Of a stretch of 37,325 nucleotides of DNA, positions 8,519 through 37,325 are shown in pieces. A program made the translations under genes and the position numbers. The notes under the pieces were generated by a model. It saw only the letters and a program-made list of their open reading frames with translations. It had not been told where the DNA came from and made no database searches. The stretch covers positions 1 through 37,325 of the forward strand of contig JWZX01003190.1 of assembly GCA_001275005.1 (NCBI GenBank), written 5' to 3'. Origin of the DNA: Chrysochromulina tobinii (taxonomy: Eukaryota; Haptophyta; Prymnesiales; Chrysochromulinaceae). Within the stretch, counting starts at the first letter, position 1, and the number at the start of each line of letters is the position of its first letter.

Positions 8519-8810
8519 GGGGTGACGGGGGGTTTCCTATCGTTTTGAGGGGGGGGGTCCTATCAGAGACGTATCCTGATGTATCCTGATGTATCCTGCA
8601 TGTATCCTGATTGTATCTTGATGTGTCCCGTAAAGAAATGTTGAAAGTAACAGCAAGTCAGATTTAAATTTTGAGATACATCAGGATACACTCAAGATAC
8701 ATGTACATGTACGTGTATCCTTCACGATACATGCAGGATACATCACGATACATAAGGATACGTATCTGATAGGACCCCCCCCAAAACGATAGGAAACCAC
8801 CCCGCACCCC
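8519..8810. mobile_element. Foldback / MITE-like element
   Basis: About 292 bp whose two ends are inverted repeats of roughly 100 bp. The left arm begins GGGGTGACGGGGGGTTTCCT and continues CTATCGTTTTGAGG, GGTCCTATCAG, then tandem GTATCCTGAT units. The right arm read on the other strand begins GGGGTGCGGGGTGGTTTCCT with the same order of blocks, including GTCCTATCAGATACGTATCC. The centre is AT-rich (AGATTTAAATTTTGA). It has no coding capacity. The flanks ATCAAACC (8511-8518) and ATGAAACA (8811-8818) agree at 6 of 8 positions and may be a decayed 8-bp target duplication. It fits a non-autonomous DNA transposon; the superfamily is not determined. Confidence 0.75.
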
Positions 8811-10837: not shown

Positions 10838-13800
10838 ATGGTGCCGCTGAGCCGCACTTCGCTTCGCCTCATAGGCCTCATCGTGCTCGGAGTCGTGTGC
10901 CATGTGCTCCTGCGCCACCACGCGGCTGAGCTCGCCAAGAGCCGGCGACTACCGCCGAAGCAGCAGCAGGCGAAGCAGGAGCTCGCCCAGGCAGCATCGC
11001 ACGTGCCCAGTACCAGTACCACAGCTGTCGGCAGCGAGGCCTGTCGCACGGGAGCGCCGTTGAGTGTGCTCCTCATCCACGAGCACCACCTCAAGCCGAT
11101 CGGCTCCGACGTTCGGCTGCTCGGGGTCGTCGCGCAGGTGCGACGGGTGCCACGGAGTGCTTGCGCATGCTGCTAAGTGCATGCTGATTACATGCTGATG
11201 ATTTCCTGCTGATTGCATGCTGATGGGTGCCTGCCGCAGCTGCGCGGCCTAGGCCACACTGTCTCGCTGCTTTTCCGTGGCAAGACACCCACTGAGCAGC
11301 GCTCGCCGCCGACGCACGAGCTCGCCGCGCTCCTTGGCGCGGCGCGGAGCAGCGAGACGGAGCTCTCGCCTACAGAGGCCCCGCCGCACGTGCCGTCGAT
11401 CTACGAGTACTCCGAGCTCGATTCGCTCGCGACGCTGGCGCGGCAGGGGTGGTTTGACGTGGTGCTGTGCCCGCTCTGGTTTTGGCGCGACCCGATGGCC
11501 TCGGCCGCCGAGCTTCTGCTCCCGACTCTCGCGCTCCACGCGCCCGAGGGCCGACGGCCCTTCATCGCTGTCCTGTCGGACGACGCACACTCGTATAAGG
11601 CCTCGATGATGGCGGAGTGGGAAACTTCGGTGGAGCGCAAGGCATTTCATCAGGGCAAGGCGCACTCCCTGCCACCCCGCCAGCGCGCCGTGTACGAGCT
11701 CGCCGACGCCGTCGTCCACATCTCTGCGGCTGATTCCGCACTCGAGCGCAGTGCGTTCAACGCGTCGTGTCGCCACTGGCACGTGCTCAAGATGTCGCCG
11801 CGCGGCGTGCGGCTAATGAATACGTCGAGCTCGCGCCAGCTCGCTCAGCGGCGCATGCTCGAACAGGGGCCACAGCCGATACCGCAGGGGCAGCAAGGGC
11901 AGCAAGGGCAGGAGCAGGAGCAGGAGCAGCAGCAGCAGCAGAAGGGCACGGGGCAGCGCAGGCTGCTTCAGCTCAACGAGGGCGAGGAGGCGCCACAGGC
12001 GGAGGCACAGCAGTCTCAGGGCGAGCAGCAGCCGCCGTTACAAGGCTCGGAGGCACAGGAAGAGGTGGGGCGCGATGGGGGACTCCCGGCTGATCCTGCT
12101 GATGAGGCGAATGAGGCGAATGAGGCGAATGAGGCGAATGAGGGGCGCGATGGGGGACTCCCTGCTGACGAGGTGCAAGAGGCTTACACTCAGAGCGATG
12201 AGGCGGCGCAAGGCGATGCTGAGGCTAAGAGCAACGAGGCAGCGCAGGGCGGTCAGGAATCCTCTTTTGAGGAGGTCGAGCAAGCCGACAAGGCGCAAGG
12301 CAAGGAGGCATCACGAGGACAGGCGTCACAACGCGAGAAGCAGCAGCAGCAGAAGGAGGAGGAGGTGGAGGAGGTGGAGGAGGTAGAGGAGGAGGCAGAG
12401 GAAGAGGTGGTTGTGGATCAGGAACCTCCACAAGCGCAGTCACAGCAGGAGGATGCAACCCCTGAGCTGCAGGAGGGGGAGACGGCGGTGCCGGCGGCAC
12501 TGGAGGCGCGGGAGGCGGCGGCGATGGAGCAGACGGCGGCAAAGGAGCAGACGGCGGCAAAGGAAGAGATAGAGGCGAAGGGGGAGACGGTGATGAAGGA
12601 GGCGCCGGAGAAGGTGCCGGAGGAGGCGCCGAAGGAGGCGCCGGAGGAGGCGCCGAAGGAGGCGCCGGAGGAGGCGCCGGAGGAGGCGCCGGAGCTTGCG
12701 CAGGGCGAGCAGCACCCCTCAGACGAAGATGAAGATCATCATCAGCAGCAGGCGCAGGAGGGGGAGGGCCGGGCGGCAGAGGCGGAGGCGCCCGAGCCGC
12801 CATCGGAGCCACCATCGGAGCCGGAGCAGCAGCAGCCTGTACAGCAGCCCGTACAGCAGCCCGTACAGCAGCCTGCGCAGCATTCGGCTGACGATGATGA
12901 GGGCATCATTCACACCAAGAACACCGATGAGTCGTCCTCCACGCCGTCACCCTCGTTGCCGCCCCCGAGCGCATCGCGGACTGCAGAGATGGCACCCTCC
13001 CAAATTAGGAAGGATGATGTGGTCCAAATTAGGAATGCAGCGGCAACGGCGTCCGCAGCGGCAGCAGCCAGCAAGGGCGCGCTGGCCGGCGCCGTCGCGA
13101 GCGGCCTCGAGGGCGCGCTGACCGGCGCCGTCGCGAGCGGCCTCGTCTTCCCGCCCTCGAGGATCGGCTTCATGGGCAACGGCATCACGCCAACGAACCA
13201 TCTTTCTATCGAGTGGTTCCTGAGCGAGGTGTGGCCCGCGCTCAGGACGGCACTACCGAGCGTGCGGCTGCGGCTCGTCGGCTATGCGCCCGATGACCGC
13301 CCGAAGAGGCAGCAGGGCAAGCCGTGCGACGCGCTCAGCTCGCCCGTACGCTGCGGCTGGGCGTGGCGCACCTCGCTGGCGGGGCACGAGGCGGCAGGTG
13401 GCGTGGATGAGCTCGGCTTCATCTCAGATGCGGAGATGGTCGAAGAGCTCCTTAGCTGGCGTGCGATGATCGTGCCGATCCTACGCTCGACCGGCGTGAA
13501 CACCAAGCTGCTGCCTGGCCTCCAGCTTGGCGTCCCCATCGTCCTCACGAGCGTCTCGGCGTCGCCACTCGGCATCCCGACTGACGACTCCGTCGCGCTG
13601 CTCGCCGACGACGCGCCCACGTTCGTGCGCCAGCTGCGTCGGTTGCACGAGCACCCTTTGGAGGCACTCCGATTGGCCGCCTCGGCGCGCCGCCATTGGG
13701 AGCGGCTACTGGATGAGGATCGATCCGCGTCTGATCTCGCGCCGCTGCTGCAGCTGGGGTGCGACGTGCTGCAGCACGTCCCTGAAAGCGAGCGCCCCTT

Positions 13801-19409: not shown

Positions 19410-20863
19410 ATGATCGCGATGCTCATCAACTGTGTAGCGGATAAGACCAAGGCCCACAGCGTTGCCATCATCTCGGTCGTCTTTTCGCCCGATGGCACGA
19501 AGATCGTGTCGGGATCGATTGATGGGACGATCAAAGTCTGGGATTTTGGTGCGCCGCGGAGCCTCGAATCGCCCCTCCTTGGCGAAGACTGACGCCATTT
19601 GGCTTGCCTGGCAGACAAACTGGAGCTGTTGAGCGAGAAGACAAACGCCCACAGCGACTGCATCAACTCGGTGGCGTTTTCCCCTGACGGCACCAAGATT
19701 GTGTCTGGATCGTGGGACAAGACGATCAAAGTCTGGGAATCTGGTGCGCCGGAGCCTCGAATCGCCCCTCCTTGGCCAAAACTGACACCTGCTGGCTTGT
19801 CTGGCAGGCAAGCTGGAGTTTCTGAGCGAGAAGACCAACGCCCACAGCAGCTACGTCATGTCGGTGGCGTTTTCCCCGGACAGGACCAAGATCGTGTCTG
19901 GATCGGCTGACGGGACGATCAAAGTCTGGGATTCGGGTGCGCTGCAGCCCTCATATCACCCCTCCTTTTGGCTAAAACTGACGCTTGATGGCTTGCCTGG
20001 CAGACAAGCTGGAGATGCTGAGCGAGAAGACGAACGCCCACAGCCACTGGGTCATGTCGGTGGCGTTTTCCCCTGACGGGACCAAGATTGTGTCGGGATC
20101 GCGCGACGGGACGATCAAAGTCTGGGATTCAGGTGCGCCGCGAGCTCAAAATCGCCCCTCTCCTTGGCCAAAACTGATGCATGTTGGATTGTCTGGCAGC
20201 CAAACTGGAGCAGCTGAGCGAGAAGACGAATGCCCACAGCCAACACCTCACGTCGGTCGCGTTTTCCCCACACGGGACCAAGATTGTCTCGGGATCGGGC
20301 GACAAGACTATCAAAGTCTGGGATTTGGGTGCGCTGGAGCCCTCGAAATCGCCCCTCCTTGGCCAAAACTGACGCCTGCTGGCTTGTCTGGCAGGCAAAC
20401 TGGAGCTGCTGAGCGAGAAGACGAACGCCCACAGAAACTACATCGAGTCGGTCGCGTTTTCTCCGGACGGGACCAAGATTGTCTCGGGAGCGCACGACAA
20501 GACGATCAAAGTATGGGATTCAGGTGCGCCGCGAGCTCAAAATCGCCCCTCCTCGGCCAAATCTGACGCCTGCTGGCTTGTCTGGCAGACAAACTGGAGC
20601 TGCTGAGCGAGAAGACGGACGCCCACCACCACTACGTCAGGTCGGTGGCGTTTTCCCCGGACGGGACCAAGATTGTGTCTGGATCGGACGACGGGACGAT
20701 CAAAGTCTGGGATATGGTCAAGTGGTCTCGCAAAGATCATTTGATGTTCAATGATACCACCCAGCGATTTGTCTTGCTGCTGCTGTGGATGAAAAAATGC
20801 AGTATGAAGTTTCCGGATGATGTGCTAGATCTACTCATCGAAGCTTGCTTGCAAAGCAGGTGA
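19410..20863 (+). CDS. WD40 beta-propeller protein, seven near-identical repeats, one per exon
   Basis: Seven exons: 19410-19548, 19615-19743, 19808-19936, 20004-20132, 20200-20328, 20395-20523 and 20589-20863; 352 residues. Exons 2-6 are each exactly 129 nt (43 residues), all phase 1. Introns are 64-67 nt, all with GTGCGC donors and GGCAG acceptors. Each repeat reads [13 protein letters not shown], then a variable four to six residues, [15 protein letters not shown], [10 protein letters not shown]: the WD40 consensus with its GH-type turn replaced by AHS. Seven repeats make one propeller, a protein-interaction platform. The last exon adds a 49-residue tail ([20 protein letters not shown]). 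The stop follows CAG|GTGAGAGG, a perfect donor, so a further exon is possible. Partner and pathway are unknown. Confidence 0.88.
19549..20588. repeat. Tandem amplification of an exon+intron unit (about 195 bp)
   Basis: Successive exon starts are spaced 193, 196, 196, 195 and 194 bp. The introns repeat nearly verbatim: GTGCG donor, ATCGCCCCTCCTTGGC, CAAAACTGACGC, GGCTTGTCTGGCAG. Intron similarity is as high as exon similarity, so the copies are recent or homogenised. The nearly invariant ACTGAC lies 25-30 nt before each acceptor, where a branch point is expected. Confidence 0.95.
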
Positions 20864-21246: not shown

Positions 21247-23441
21247 ATGGAGACGAGTGCGACGTCGCCCTCGAACGCGGTCGCGATGATGACGCAGCAG
21301 GCGGAGGAGCAGTGGCGTCGCGCCGGTGGCCATGTGCTCCCGCCATTCGCACCGATTGCGTGCGCGAGCCGTCGAGCATTTGCGCTCCTGCAGGCGGCTG
21401 CAGCGCTCGACCAGGAGTGCGCACGGCTTCGACAGGAGCTGTGCGAGCTCAACACTGGTGAGGACGCAACGCGCCGCGTGCGCGCGTGCGTCTCGCCAAC
21501 GTCAAAAGCCGGCGCGGCCGCACAGCAGGAGATGGACGATGAGTCCGACGGCAGCGACCTGCAGGGCTCGCTCGTCGCCGCCAATGTGCGGCCCGGGAAG
21601 CCCTTGGTGCTGCTGTCCGCGCGGGACGGGCTCGAGCACCGAGCGCCCGACGGCTCGCTGCGACTGATCGCCGCCGACATGCTCTCCGAGCGAGAGCGCG
21701 AGCAGCTGCTCGCTGGCGGCTTGGTCGCCATGGCCGGCGCCTTCAGCCGCTGCGGCCAGACTACCCTCGGTATCTCCCCGGCTCTCGCGGCGCGTGTGCT
21801 CGCAACGACGGCGTCGGCGTCGGCCGCCTCGGGCGCAGACGGCACCGCAGGCGCTGCGGCCGCGCTCTCCTCCACCGCTATGGCGGGCGCGGACCTTTCA
21901 GGGACGGTGCCGTTGCTCTACCGCGTCGTCGAGCGCGCGCGCCGTCGGGTGGCCGCTGCGTTCGGTGCCGACCTGGCGTCGCTTCGCGTGAGCGACGCCA
22001 CGTTCACACGGCTGCAGCCGGTCAGCACGCCCGGTGCAGGCGGCGCACGCACACGCAAGCCAGGCAGCGCGGCGCGCTCCAGCAGCACCAGCAGCGCGGG
22101 CCACCATGGCAACGATGGCAGCGCTGGCGAGGACGGTGGAGGCGCTTGCACCTGCAGCGAGCACGACGACGTCGTCGACGAGGACGAGCTGCTGGCATGA
22201 GGCCACCGCCGCCTGGTGCTCTCGACGTGGGTCTGCTGCGGCACGATCAGTTCTGCTACTGGCGCGCACACATCGATCAAGTGAGCGCGTCTGAGGACCT
22301 CTGAGGACCTCTGATGACCTCTGATGACCTCTGATGACCTCTGATGACCTCTGATGGCGCGCACACATCGATCAAGTGAGCGCGTCTGAGGACCTCTGAT
22401 GACCTCGGATGACCTCTGATGACCGCTGATGACCGCTGATGACCGCTGGTGACCGCTGATGATCAGGTGAGCGTCGCGGAGTATGAGTACTCGGCACTCC
22501 TCTACCTCACGCGCTATGGTTCGGCCGCGCCCACGGAAGAGGGCGGCACTGGCGCCACTGCCGGCGGCGCCGCTGCCGGCGGCGCCGCTGCCGCCCCAGT
22601 CGGCGATTTTGAGGGCGGGCGGCTCGTCTTCCACGACTTGGACGCCGATCGGGTGGTGCTGCCCGAGCCTGGCGTGCTGGTCGCCTTCGAGTCTGGCGCG
22701 CCCAACCTGCATGCTGTCCAGCGCGTGACGCGCGGCAGCCGCTTCGCGCTCACGATGTGGTTCACAAGCAAGGCAGAGATGCCCGGCGCGGCGGTGGACC
22801 CGACGCACGCGGCGATGCAGCAGTGGGCAGCGGCCCTGCCAGATCCTCGTGTCGATGCCCCGTCCCCCATCACGCCACCGCTCACGGCGGCGCCATCAGA
22901 GGTCATCAGCGGTCATCAGCGGACATCAGTGCTCGCGACAGCGCCGCCGCCGCCTTTGCCGCCGCTGCCAGCGCCACCCTCCTCCAGGCTGCCCTCACGC
23001 GAAGAATCGCTCGTCTCGGCGGCCATCTGTTCTCTACCCGCAAACGATCCGCTCAATCGAGCGCTCGTCATCGCCAACGCCGCGGGCGGCCATCAGCTGG
23101 GTGCCATCCTCGAAAGAGCATTAGGCATCCCTGCTGCTCTAGCATTTGCGACGCCTCGCCCGTCCCCAGGCCAGCCACCGCCGCCGCTGCGGCTGGTGGA
23201 CGGCGTCGGCGGTGCATTGCTTGCGAGCCGCGTCGGCGCGCTCGACGCGCTTCAGACGACGCTGCTGCGGGCTCGGGCCGAGAGGGCAGCTCAGCAGCGC
23301 GCGAAACGGCCCACGCCCACGCAGGCCGTCCCCGGCCTGCAGTCACCGCCTCCAGACCCGCTGCCAGCCCCGCCGGTGGGCGCAGATGCGCCTGCGCCGG
23401 CCAAAAGCGGCGACGATGCCTTCTCCGTGTTCGACTTTTAG
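21247..23441 (+). CDS. 2-oxoglutarate/Fe(II) oxygenase (prolyl-hydroxylase-like)
   Basis: At least two or three exons. The N-terminal part is 21247 to about 22020 (METSATSPSNAV..., RLIAADMLSEREREQLLAGG, LRVSDATFTRLQP). An exon ending at 22280 carries LRHDQFCYWRAHIDQ, and the last exon is 22467-23441 (VSVAEYEYSALLYLTRYG). The iron triad is complete: H-x-D in AHID, and the distal His in GAPNLHAVQRVTRG followed by the 2OG-binding Arg of GSRFALTMWF. DFEGGRLVFHD and PGVLVAFESG are typical of P4H/2OGFOD3-like double-stranded beta-helix enzymes. The intron 22281-22466 is secure (phase 0, Q|V). Between about 22021 and 22240 the frame changes from the first part to the HID exon, so a further intron or an indel lies there. 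The C-terminus (after about 22860) is Pro/Ala-rich. The substrate is unknown. Confidence 0.82.
22261..22466. repeat. 10-bp minisatellite intron with duplicated 5' splice junction
   Basis: Intron 22281-22466 consists of CTGATGACCT/CTGATGACCG decamers with about ten CTGAT copies. The last 20 exon bases plus 24 intron bases (22261-22304) recur without mismatch at 22356-22399, 95 bp downstream, including a second copy of the GTGAGC donor. The acceptor side (GATCAG|GTGAGCG, 22461-22473) also resembles the donor side (GATCAA|GTGAGCG). Confidence 0.95.
22893..22930 (+). repeat. Reverse-complement copy of the intron motif inside the exon
   Basis: GAGGTCATCAGCGGTCATCA is the reverse complement of the CTGATGACCGCTGATGACCTC type decamers that fill the intron about 450 bp upstream. 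Here it is translated as SEVISGHQRTS in the Pro-rich C-terminal part of the oxygenase. Confidence 0.8.
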
Positions 23442-34603: not shown

Positions 34604-37074
34604 TCACAGCCTCCTCACGGCGACATCTTGGATGCGTGCGCGACGACGTGTGTGGCACGTGGTGGTGGGAAGGGGGAGCGGCCTCGAGAGCGCCAGGCAC
34701 TCAAGCGGCAGAACATAGTCCTCCTCGGGTAATCTCCGCCAATGCGAGATCGAGTCGAGCAGCCATCTCGCGTCGAGCAGTTTGAGCGTGGGCAACAGCT
34801 TATGCGCCTGCGCCTGCCGTAACAGCTGGCGCGTGCGCTCGCAGTGGACGGAGCCCTCAGCCAGCAAGGCAGGCGGCACGAGCATGTGGGTCGAGCTGGG
34901 GAGTACCTGAGGAGGGAGGCAATCAAGTGCAATTAGTGATCATCAGATGGCAATCAAGAGCATGTGGGTCGAGCTGGGGAGCACCTGATGAGGGAGGCAA
35001 TCAAGTGCAATTAGTGATCATCAGATGGCAATCAAGAGCATGTGGGTCGAGCTGGGGAGCACCTGATGAGGGAGGCAATCCGGTAATCAGCGATGAGGAA
35101 GCACTCAGAGGTCATCAGCGATGAGGAAGCACTCAGAGGTCATCAGAGGTCGAGCTGGGGCTGATGACGAAGCACTCAGAGGTCATCAGGGGTCGAGCTG
35201 GGGCGCACCTCGGCATACACCGCAGCCCCGCACCGACGCGCGAGCTGCACCTCCGGAGGCACTACCCCATCGACAAACAGCAGAGACGAGGGGCCGACGA
35301 AGGTACAGGCCACCCCAGAGAGGAGCCTGCCGCACTGCGCTAGCAGCAGCTCGCGAACGTCTGCCGCTGGGCGCACCGGCATGAACATCTCAGTGCTGCT
35401 CGTGCTGCTCGTGCCGCTCGTGCCGCTGCTGCCGCCTGCGCCGGTACTGCCGCTGCTCGTCGACGGAGCGGCTGCGGCTGCGGCACCAGCGGGAGGCCGT
35501 GGTGCCGCCACCTCCTCGTCGCCGCCGCCGGCCATTGTCATCGCCGTCGGCAAGCACAGCTCCGCGGGCGCCTCCGCTGGCGCCGCTGCTCGTGGCGGCG
35601 GAGGCGGCGCCGCCTCCGCCGCTGCTGTCGGCGCCGCCTCCGCCAATGCGGACGAAGCGGACGTGTAGGACGCGACTTCGTACGAGCCAAGCGACGGAAC
35701 TCGGTGGAGACGCGAGGGGGCGCTGTCCTGCGGAGCGCCGTCCTGGGCGCCCGTCCACGAGGCTTGTTGGGCTGTCGACGACGCCATGAGGGGCGAGCGT
35801 GGTGCTGAGCGGCCTCCCTGGCTGAGTGCATGCGTGCCTCCCTGGCTGAGTGCATGCGTGCGCAAGGCGCTGCCTTCGCGGGACGCACGCCGGCTTACAC
35901 CGTCCTGTGGAGCGCCGCACTGGGCGCCTGAGCACGGGGCTGTGTGGGCAGTCGACGGCGCCATGATGAGCGGCGAGCGTGGTACTGAGCGCGCTGGCTG
36001 CCCGCTGCCGTTGCCGTCCACACCACCAGCGACGCCGGCTCCGGCGCCGGCTCCTGTGGAACCTGGGGAACTCTCCGCGACCGGCGAGAGGGGCTGTGGG
36101 CAATGTCGAATCCCAGCGGTGGCATTGTGCAGTGAAAATGGGGAGAGGCCGCTGGATGGGCGCACGGTCAAGCTTCGTGGCGATCGCGGCGGCCTGTCAT
36201 AGCGCTCGAAGTACGCCCGATGGATGGCCTTCAGATGCTCCGCCACGCGGGGGAGCGACACGTCTGTGGGCGCGCCTACAAATCGATCGATCAGCACCAG
36301 ATTGGGCACGTGATTCGCCCACGCGATCGGCGAGTCGTCGACGATGAGGACGAGCTCGGGCACGCAAAGCAGCCGCTGGAGCGTCTTGGTGGTGCGGTCG
36401 AGCGCAGGGTGCCATGCAAGCACCTGCCCGGGCTTGAAGATCTCATGCTTCGGGTCGAGGTAGTGCAGCGCCTGCTGTACGTACCTGCGCAGGGAAGGCG
36501 AGGCGCCATGGTGAGCACTATGCCGGGAGGGCGCGGCGCCGTGGTGAGCACTATGCCGGGAGGTTGCGGCGCCATGGTGAGCAATGGTATGCTTCGGGTG
36601 CAGCGAGGGCGGCTTGATGCACGCACTCGCGCGAGCCCATCACCTGATGAGGGTGGCAATCAGCATGCACTCAAGGGCATTCCGCATAGTCCACGCACTC
36701 GCGCGAGCCCATAGTGTACAAATGGACGCAGAAGAGGTCGGCCATCTGTCCCAGGAACTCGTGGACACCCGGGCGCAGCCGCATCTCAAACTCCACATTC
36801 TGCACGCGCAGTGTCACCTCTGTCACCCCGCCTCCCTCGGCATCCGCCGCCGCGTCGCTGCCGCCGAAGCTCACTGAGGCCAGCCCAGCAGACGACTTGT
36901 CGGCGTTGTCGCGAGCGGAGGAGGGAGCGCCACTGCCTGCGGCAGGCGCCACACCGGGCGGCAACGGACCGATTGCGGACGGCGCCACCGGTCCCGGCTC
37001 AGGCACCGGTATGGAGCTATCACTGGTGCCCTCACTATTGCTACTACATGAGCGGCTGCCGAATGACGTGGCGG

Positions 37075-37152
<78 letters not shown>

Positions 37153-37325
37153 TATCCTGCGCGCTGCTACGGCCGCCGGCAGTGCCACTGCTGCCCTCGC
37201 CGCGCGCCGCCTCGTCGGTTTCGTGAACGGCTTCAACTCCCGACTGGCCTGCGCCTGCCAGATCGCTCTCGTCGACATCGTCCTCCTCCTCCTCCTCCTC
37301 CTCCTCCTCCTCCTCCTCCTCCTCT
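34604..37325 (-). CDS. FCP1-like CTD phosphatase with BRCT domain (5' partial)
   Basis: Exons on the minus strand: beyond 37325 to about 36695, about 36474 to 35209, and 34906-34604. The middle-last junction is certain (VYAE|VLPSSTHM, phase 0). The first junction is GAGTGC|GTGGAC to an acceptor at 36475 or 36485, not settled. FCP1-type enzymes dephosphorylate the RNA polymerase II CTD. Seen: FEMRLRPGVHEFLGQMADLF, VHLYTMGSREC, HYLDPKHEIF and the HAD acidic motif ELVLIVDDSPIAW. A low-complexity stretch of about 230 residues follows, then a C-terminal BRCT domain (LLSGVACTFVGPSSLLFVDG, LLDARWLLDSISHW). The catalytic DxDxT start is outside the window, upstream of poly-Glu and poly-Gln tracts. An active phosphatase therefore cannot be confirmed here. 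Confidence 0.85.
34881..35208. repeat. Repeat-built intron 2 of the FCP1-like gene
   Basis: A 78-bp unit starts at 34881, 34959 and 35037 and contains the 3' splice site plus the first 26 bases of the last exon. Acceptor copies therefore exist at 34907 (used), 34985 and 35063. A 28-bp unit (CGATGAGGAAGCACTCAGAG plus GTCATCAG) is repeated at 35091 and 35119. GGTCGAGCTGGGG recurs five times, including at the donor (35208 side) and in the exon. Confidence 0.95.
35813..35860 (-). repeat. 24-bp in-frame tandem duplication
   Basis: Two exact units, with CCTCCCTGGCTGAGTGCATG as the + strand core, encode THALSQGG twice in the disordered middle of the FCP1-like protein. A larger duplicated block (SPLMASSTA / SPLIMAPSTA) surrounds it. 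Confidence 0.9.
36485..36712. repeat. Repeat-built intron 1 of the FCP1-like gene
   Basis: The exon end and donor (ATGGGCTCGCGCGAGTGC|GTG on the gene strand, 36712-36692) recur unchanged 72 bp into the intron (36640-36620). A second array of three degenerate units (GGCGCCATGGTGAGCACTAT, then GCCGGGAGG) fills 36513-36590. A 22-bp block at 36641-36662 matches intron 2 at 21 of 22 positions. Confidence 0.93.
37076..37153 (-). repeat. CAG trinucleotide repeat encoding poly-Gln
   Basis: About 25 consecutive CTG triplets on the + strand (one CTG replaced by TTG) are read as CAG/CAA on the gene strand in the FCP1-like frame (SSAQDRQQQ...QQPATSFGS). The purity suggests a polymorphic microsatellite. 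Confidence 0.93.
37279..37325 (-). repeat. GAG trinucleotide repeat encoding poly-Glu, cut by the window end
   Basis: A pure CTC run on the + strand extends to the last base. In the FCP1-like frame it is GAG, followed by DDVDESDLAGAGQSGVEAVH. The frame is open to the window edge, so the gene continues beyond it. Confidence 0.9.

What the first reader, a model, noticed from the sequence alone, without database searches (positions are those of the whole stretch)
34881..35208. 3' splice junction tandemly copied twice inside an intron (FCP1-like intron 2)
A 78-bp unit spanning the branch region, acceptor and first exon bases is present about 2.5 times. The intron's first bases (GTGCGCCCCAGCTCGACCC) also match the downstream exon's first bases (GTACTCCCCAGCTCGACCC). 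This AGGT-bearing direct repeat at both ends is the predicted footprint of intron birth by tandem duplication. The decoy acceptors at 34985 and 35063 would lead to an early stop after VLPSSTHMLLIAI, so acceptor choice matters.
Basis: partly seen in the sequence, partly recalled or inferred. Interest (0 to 1): 0.88.

Follow-up and report, generated by a model that had tools for sequence, protein, structure and literature searches.

The report
Intron tails copied into new genes
In this genome, likely that of a haptophyte alga, one intron tail sequence recurs at thousands of sites, and in 40 of 65 sites sampled the predicted intron begins with a copy of the exon bases that follow it, so new introns (including this one in an FCP1-like gene) are likely made when the tail of an existing intron is copied, perhaps through RNA, into a gene.

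Summary
The repeat is real. The predicted 302-nt intron 2 (35208-34907, minus strand) of an FCP1-like gene opens with a 17-of-19 copy of exon 3's first bases, holds two 78-bp units, and its decoy acceptors (35063, 34985) give early stops. It does not look like tandem duplication of exon sequence. Its tail, TTGCCTCCCTCATCAG|GT, occurs 3,239 times (up to 2 mismatches; reversed control 1) in the 53-Mb genome. In 40 of 65 sampled exact-match sites the same layout recurs: a copy of the downstream exon's start (mostly 13-43 bp, usually at G|GT), a CTGAT-rich element, the acceptor (exon-swapped control 4 of 1,300). In unselected sequence outside the window the rate was 3 of 9. This is introner-type insertion with unusually long, variable target duplications, no common 5' end and no terminal inverted repeats. 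Some elements carry exon bases of the gene they came from (Lon; two cross-gene pairs; FCP1 and a PX gene, weaker), so tails of existing introns, sometimes most of an intron, appear to be what is copied. The RNA step is inferred. The 78-bp array is likely secondary. Filed as a new variant of introners.

The parts
34907..35208 (-). predicted intron 2 of the FCP1-like gene (donor at 35208, acceptor at 34907)
   Evidence: six relatives that cover the junction align without a gap there
35190..35208 (-). first exon-3 copy (target duplication 1) at the intron start, 19 nt, 17 of 19 to 34888-34906
35063..35189 (-). element E1, 127 nt, CTGATGACC-rich, ending TTGCCTCCCTCATCAG (decoy acceptor 35063)
35036..35062 (-). 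exon-3 copy, 27 nt (target duplication 2)
34985..35035 (-). element E2, 51 nt, ending CCCTCATCAG (decoy acceptor 34985)
34958..34984 (-). second 27-nt exon-3 copy
34907..34957 (-). second E2, 51 nt, ending CCCTCCTCAG (predicted true acceptor)
   Evidence: the near-identical tail on C643 ends in the same CTCCTCAG variant
34880..34906 (-). the original target: first 27 nt of exon 3
36485..36698 (-). predicted intron 1; ends in a second tail family (AGTGCTCACCAYGGCGC...CCCTGCGCAG) and holds an inner TTGAGTGCATGCTGATTGCCACCCTCATCAG element next to a 21-nt copy of the exon-1/donor junction

Best explanation
Intron 2 of this FCP1-like gene ends in a tail that recurs at thousands of sites in the genome, and it likely arose when the tail of another intron was copied into the exon at a G|GT site, duplicating 19-27 exon bases. 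The duplicated exon bases would supply the new 5' splice site, and the copied tail would supply branch region and acceptor, so splicing is predicted to restore the reading frame exactly. Across the family the 3' end of the copied piece is fixed at the intron's last base, while its 5' end and the duplication length vary. That fits 5'-truncated copying of an excised intron RNA by a reverse transcriptase, or reverse splicing followed by reverse transcription; this step is inferred. Repeated insertion at the same exon start, or unequal exchange between duplicated targets, then likely made the 78-bp array. Shown: the tail family, the exon copies with controls, elements that carry exon bases of another locus. 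Inferred: the RNA step, the order of events, which acceptor is used.
For: Tail family: 1,074 exact TTGCCTCCCTCATCAG, 726 before GT, 494 before GTG; 3,239 at up to 2 mismatches, reversed control 1. Exon copy in 40 of 65 sampled sites against 4 of 1,300 swapped and 0 of 65 reversed. First copy starts GT in 35 of 40; base before it G in 25 of 28, background 30%; no 5' consensus; TIR-like ends in 1 of 27. Joined exons open in 22 of 28, read-through in 5 of 28. Donor tags: Lon; a 113-nt intron shared by L054 and L078 with one mismatch, carrying L054's exon start; a 76-nt piece shared by L072 and L084 carrying 17 of 17 bases of L072's exon; FCP1 and a PX gene on C643. Two insertions at one site on C643 with exon copies of different length and different 5' ends. 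Joined Lon aligns gap-free with solved Lon chains. A second, unrelated tail shows the same layout.
Against: No RNA was seen. In unselected sequence outside the window only 3 of 9 family acceptors show the exon copy, one of them at AG|CC with no GT, so the sampled exact 19-mers may be the youngest. 25 of 65 show none. A test with short 12-mer tags was no better than its reversed control after family words were set aside. Spread to near neighbours is weak. In the two cross-gene pairs the recipient exon shares 6-8 bases with the start of the copied piece, which also fits microhomology or gene conversion. Relative P0122 seems to have an intron at this site without the exon copy. In FCP1 intron 1 the repeated stretch does not begin at GT. 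The GT start may be survivorship under selection for splicing and not target choice.
Confidence: 0.6

Rival explanations
1. [quoted passage not shown]
For: Known from Symbiodinium (4-bp duplications; PMC9860276). The fixed 3' end and dispersed copies fit.
Confidence: 0.15
2. Break repair: a staggered double-strand break is filled by copying a nearby or ectopic intron tail as DNA template, leaving a long direct repeat.
For: Daphnia neointrons carry direct repeats read as staggered breaks (PMC4202315 passages). Lon copies lie within about 450 bp of each other, and microhomology is seen in two pairs.
Against: Daphnia exon-intron repeats are 4-12 bp; here the copied piece stops at the intron's last base in the sampled family, which a DNA template does not explain without selection.
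Confidence: 0.18
3. Intron birth by tandem duplication of an AGGT-bearing exon segment.
For: AG|GT at both ends and a direct repeat; the 78-bp units are a true tandem repeat.
Against: The intron body is not exon sequence but a dispersed family, and the layout recurs in other genes.
Confidence: 0.04
4. Conserved splice signals plus slippage of CTGAT repeats in ordinary introns, with chance or secondary repeats.
For: CTGAT-rich short repeats are common in the sample, and 12 of 130 CAGGTG sites without the tail also pass the repeat score.
Against: An identical 16-base tail at 1,074 sites exceeds any splice signal known to me; slippage does not place an exon copy at the far end of the intron.
Confidence: 0.03

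Closest known systems
Introners (Gozashti et al. 2022, PMC9860276; Results and three method sections read)
   Same: Many similar introns in unrelated genes; some families carry the 3' splice site and take the 5' site from the target duplication; aquatic protists including a Chrysochromulina MAG.
   Different: Earlier reports are cited there as 3-9 bp duplications, and its haptophyte example has 4 bp and carries the 5' site. Here duplications are mostly 13-43 bp, similarity is confined to the 3' side, and some elements carry donor exon bases. Its pipeline required similarity near both intron ends and dropped low-complexity families, so it would probably miss this type.
Introner elements of Amoebophrya (PMC7789003, passages)
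   Same: Repeated introns spreading like mobile elements, with direct repeats at the borders.
   Different: Direct repeats of 3-5 nt, inverted repeats of 8-20 nt and largely non-canonical splice sites there; GT-AG, long repeats and no inverted repeats here.
Intron gain by break repair in Daphnia (PMC4202315, passages)
   Same: New introns flanked by, and containing, direct repeats.
   Different: Exon-intron repeats of 4-12 bp there; here a shared tail family and longer copies.
Intron transposition by reverse splicing (reviewed in PMC3443670, passages)
   Same: An intron sequence re-used at a new position, here with a donor exon tag.
   Different: The classical model inserts a whole intron and predicts no target duplication; many cases here are 5'-truncated with a new duplication.
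Direct repeats near splice sites (PMC11782384, abstract only)
   Same: Direct repeats of 4-30 bp at intron borders read as insertion footprints.
   Different: A survey of 213 introns of several classes, mean 11.4 bp; the abstract names no family or donor.

Membership tests
Introners | Similar intron sequence at many unrelated sites | tested here: met
   3,239 tail sites at up to 2 mismatches, reversed control 1; that each site is an intron is inferred
Introners | Similarity reaching both intron ends (criterion of PMC9860276) | tested here: not met
   No consensus at the element's 5' end, 27 examined; the intron's 5' start is exon-derived
Introners | Target-site duplication | tested here: met
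   40 of 65, controls 4 of 1,300 and 0 of 65, but longer than the 3-9 bp cited for earlier families
Introners | Terminal inverted repeats (in some families only) | tested here: not met
   1 of 27 TIR-like
Introners | Spliced in vivo | not testable with these tools
   No transcripts; joined frames open in 22 of 28
Tandem genomic duplication introns | Intron body is a copy of exon sequence | tested here: not met
   Body is a dispersed tail family; only the exon-start copies are exonic
Introns from break repair | Direct repeats around filler of mixed origin | tested here: inconclusive
   Repeats present; filler is shared at its 3' end but variable at its 5' end
Intron transposition | A donor intron found at a new site in another gene | tested here: met
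   L054/L078, 113 nt with 1 mismatch; L072/L084, 76 nt with 3 mismatches
Intron transposition | RNA or cDNA intermediate | not testable with these tools
   26 reverse-transcriptase matches, 22 over the cut-off, only permit it

The most novel reading that the evidence does not exclude
Introns of this haptophyte breed from their tails: the last few dozen to about a hundred bases of a spliced-out intron are reverse-transcribed back into exons at G|GT sites, each time duplicating some 13-43 exon bases to make a fresh 5' splice site. Every new intron so inherits its acceptor from an older intron and its donor from the gene it enters, and leftover exon tags record which intron begot which.
Probability: 0.4. 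Interest if true: 0.92.

Novelty: new variant of a known kind. Interest (0 to 1): 0.78.

Why it matters
How new spliceosomal introns arise in bulk, and whether any do so through RNA, is an old open question. Here a tail at thousands of sites comes with a readable footprint (fixed 3' end, variable 5' end, long target duplication, 16 of 40 duplications still identical) and, in a few cases, a tag that names the donor. Tracing donor to recipient within one genome makes RNA and DNA models directly testable. Surveys that demand similarity at both intron ends would probably miss this type, so intron gain of this kind may be undercounted.

Tried and rejected
Scans of direct repeats in 237 kb: AG|GT is not enriched among repeat starts at large, so the signal belongs to the tail families and not to repeats in general. 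Short 12-mer tag test: no better than its reversed control once family words are set aside. Local-spread test: mean within-contig similarity only slightly higher (38 of 2,000 shuffles reach it), and at score 25 or more 0 of 32 within-contig pairs against 35 of 2,113 between contigs. Virus link: 0 matches of the exact 19-mer in viral contigs (the tool warns that records of this genome may be left out). Pfam on exon 3 and on the joined C-terminal part: no family. The two-mismatch relative of E2 on C1044 (L089): no exon copy at score 10 or more at its TCAG sites. Literature: no paper holds 'intron gain', 'reverse splicing' and 'target site duplication' together; 3 hold 'introner' and 'target site duplication'.

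Considered and set aside: U12-type or group II introns (ends are GT-AG; one U2 gene with GTAGTA was found; nothing further tested). Assembly artefact as the cause of the family is ruled out in my view by the number of sites; the copy number of the 78-bp unit itself could still be misassembled, since contigs C366 and C1217 appear to break inside one such array.

Odds: I lowered the main confidence to 0.6 and the novel case to 0.4 because the unselected rate (3 of 9) and the failed 12-mer test deserve more weight.

Full report
What was claimed and what is there. Both are in the sequence. Tandem Repeats Finder gives 78 bp, 2.6 copies, 98%, at 34880-35080; the repeat finder gives the three registers. 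The gene is on the minus strand: predicted intron 1 is 36698-36485, exon 2 is 36484-35209, intron 2 is 35208-34907, exon 3 starts at 34906. Pfam NIF matches both sides of intron 1 and the joined piece at E=5e-22. The joined protein matches three solved sequences named RNA polymerase II CTD phosphatase (Fcp1 of S. pombe, from recall), with a second segment reaching the chain's C-terminal end; Pfam found no family in that part. Seven database relatives were aligned; six cover each junction and none has a gap there; the seventh, P0122, starts in intron 1 and stops in intron 2. A decoy acceptor gives EVLPSSTHMLLIAI and two stops.

The host. Its coatomer beta protein is 99% and 91% identical to unnamed ENA proteins and 69% to that of Calcidiscus leptoporus, a haptophyte. 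I infer a marine haptophyte, probably metagenome-assembled.

Anatomy of intron 2, 5' to 3': a 19-nt copy of exon 3's start (17 of 19); a 127-nt element E1, rich in CTGATGACC, ending TTGCCTCCCTCATCAG; a 27-nt copy of exon 3's start; a 51-nt element E2 ending CCCTCATCAG; the same 27-nt copy; E2 again, ending CCCTCCTCAG; then exon 3. The two 78-bp units differ at one base.

The tail is a family. A genome search with the intron gave 47 matching places, itself included, and the seven other loci cut out (two overlap) show a like layout. TTGCCTCCCTCATCAG occurs 1,074 times exactly, 726 times before GT and 494 before GTG; the reversed patterns never. At up to two mismatches the GT form occurs 3,239 times against 1 for the reversed pattern. 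That all these are introns is inferred. The most abundant 10-mer that passed my complexity filter in 237 kb is TGATTGCCTC.

The exon copy. I fetched 60 stretches around the first listed 19-mer places, contigs C33 to C428 in the order listed, merging clusters; they hold 74 19-mers. Keeping the last acceptor of each cluster with at least 200 nt before and 40 after leaves 65. In 40 of 65 the downstream exon's first bases recur upstream at score 12 or more; with exons swapped among loci 4 of 1,300, with reversed exons 0 of 65. In 35 of 40 the upstream copy begins with GT. Joining the exons keeps a frame open in 22 of 28, reading the intron through in 5 of 28.

Results that temper this. In the unselected 237 kb a looser form of the tail occurs at 12 places, three of them FCP1 intron 2; of the 9 outside the window 3 show an exon copy, one of these (L025) at AG|CC without GT. 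The scan is ungapped, so copies with indels are missed. Among 130 CAGGTG sites without the tail 12 pass the score; 9 of these lie in L015 and L021, several in plain tandem arrays, and two (L022, L028) turned out to be a second family. AG|GT is not enriched among direct-repeat starts in general.

A second tail. Those two sites share GCATGCAAGTGCTCACCACG. AGTGCTCACCACGGCGC occurs 1,733 times at up to one mismatch, reversed control 0. Of 8 occurrences of a looser form in 237 kb, one is an internal repeat of FCP1 intron 1, and three (L021, L022, L028) show an exon copy of about 30 nt; FCP1 intron 1 ends in this family. The layout is thus not tied to one sequence.

Sites without the intron. Lon protease (L065) carries three such introns; its joined exons align gap-free over 108 residues in the two alignments printed. 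For FCP1, P0121 (this genome's own) and P0122 are evidently ORFs called on DNA without regard to introns, since they run into them. P0126 runs through the intron-2 site and leaves the family only later; P0123, on a 42.8-kb contig, is uninterrupted across both sites. I infer, without their DNA, that these relatives lack the intron. P0122 (81%) reads AEVPDDL-stop where this genome reads AEVRPSSTPDDL-stop: it seems to have an intron here without the exon copy, which does not fit simply; deletion there or a later event here would explain it.

Who copied whom. (1) Lon: the exon after intron c, and c's own exon copy, contain ACCGATTAC; the elements of introns a and b start TCGATTAC and CCGATTAC and go on as in c. 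CGATTACTCTGATGATGACC occurs three times in the genome at up to one mismatch, all here. So c is the likely source (b could have served a). (2) L054's 113-nt intron contains a copy of its own exon start (19 of 21); the same intron with one mismatch sits in L078 on another contig, where the exon does not match the tag, and similarity stops near the intron's ends; the tag core occurs at these two places only. (3) A 76-nt piece shared by L072 and L084 (3 mismatches) carries, in L084, the first 17 bases of L072's exon, 17 of 17. (4) E2 of FCP1 occurs twice on C643, in a PX-domain gene, after exon copies of 17 nt and about 27 nt and with different 5' ends; the longer one matches FCP1's last unit in 59 of 62 columns, including about 10 nt like FCP1 exon 3 and the CTCCTCAG variant. 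This last tag is short and only suggestive. A general search for 12-mer tags did not beat its control, so the claim rests on these alignments. In cases 2 and 3 the recipient exon shares 6-8 bases with the start of the piece, which fits microhomology or gene conversion as well as reverse splicing.

Mechanism. Fixed 3' end, variable 5' end, long variable target duplications, donor tags and two unrelated tails together favour copying of an intron's 3' part, most simply from excised intron RNA by a reverse transcriptase. The genome has 26 reverse-transcriptase matches, 22 over the cut-off, which only permits it. Insertions stacked behind an older intron (Lon a and c, FCP1 E2 behind E1) explain how a 3' splice junction comes to be repeated. 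The near-identical 78-bp units then most likely come from unequal exchange between duplicated targets. I saw no RNA and cannot exclude repair that copies introns as DNA.

Literature. I read the outline, the Results and three method sections of Gozashti et al. 2022 (PMC9860276), passages of PMC4202315, PMC3443670, PMC7789003 and PMC12768974 and the abstract of PMC11782384; other papers I saw only in search listings. In that reading no introner family with target duplications of this length or with donor exon tags appears. The library holds open-licence papers only.

Noticed in passing
36485-36698 (FCP1 intron 1); L021, L022, L028: A second, unrelated intron-tail family (AGTGCTCACCACGGCGC, 1,733 genome matches at up to 1 mismatch) with the same kind of exon copy at three sites.
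   Followed up: partly
36651-36698: In intron 1 a 21-nt stretch spanning exon 1's end and the donor recurs inside the intron behind CTCATCAGGTG; this repeat does not begin at GT, unlike the family rule.
   Followed up: partly
L025 near 2855: Family element with a 26-nt exon copy at AG|CC, with no GT at its start: an insertion that may not be spliceable as such.
   Followed up: no
19482-20713: Tandem array of a 196-bp unit, 6.3 copies at 83% (WD40-like by eye, not tested).
   Followed up: no
8571-8628, 11165-11234, 22260-22462: Other CTGAT-type short tandem arrays in the window, possibly in further introns of this kind.
   Followed up: no
L075 (end of contig C366) and L003/L005 (start of contig C1217): Both contig ends lie in the same tail-plus-exon-copy array, so the assembly seems to break there.
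   Followed up: no
37075-37151 and 37281-37324: Long glutamine and glutamate runs in exon 1 of the FCP1-like protein at the window's edge.
   Followed up: no
P0122 (relative of the FCP1-like protein): A close relative seems to have an intron at the intron-2 site without the exon copy (AEVPDDL-stop).
   Followed up: no
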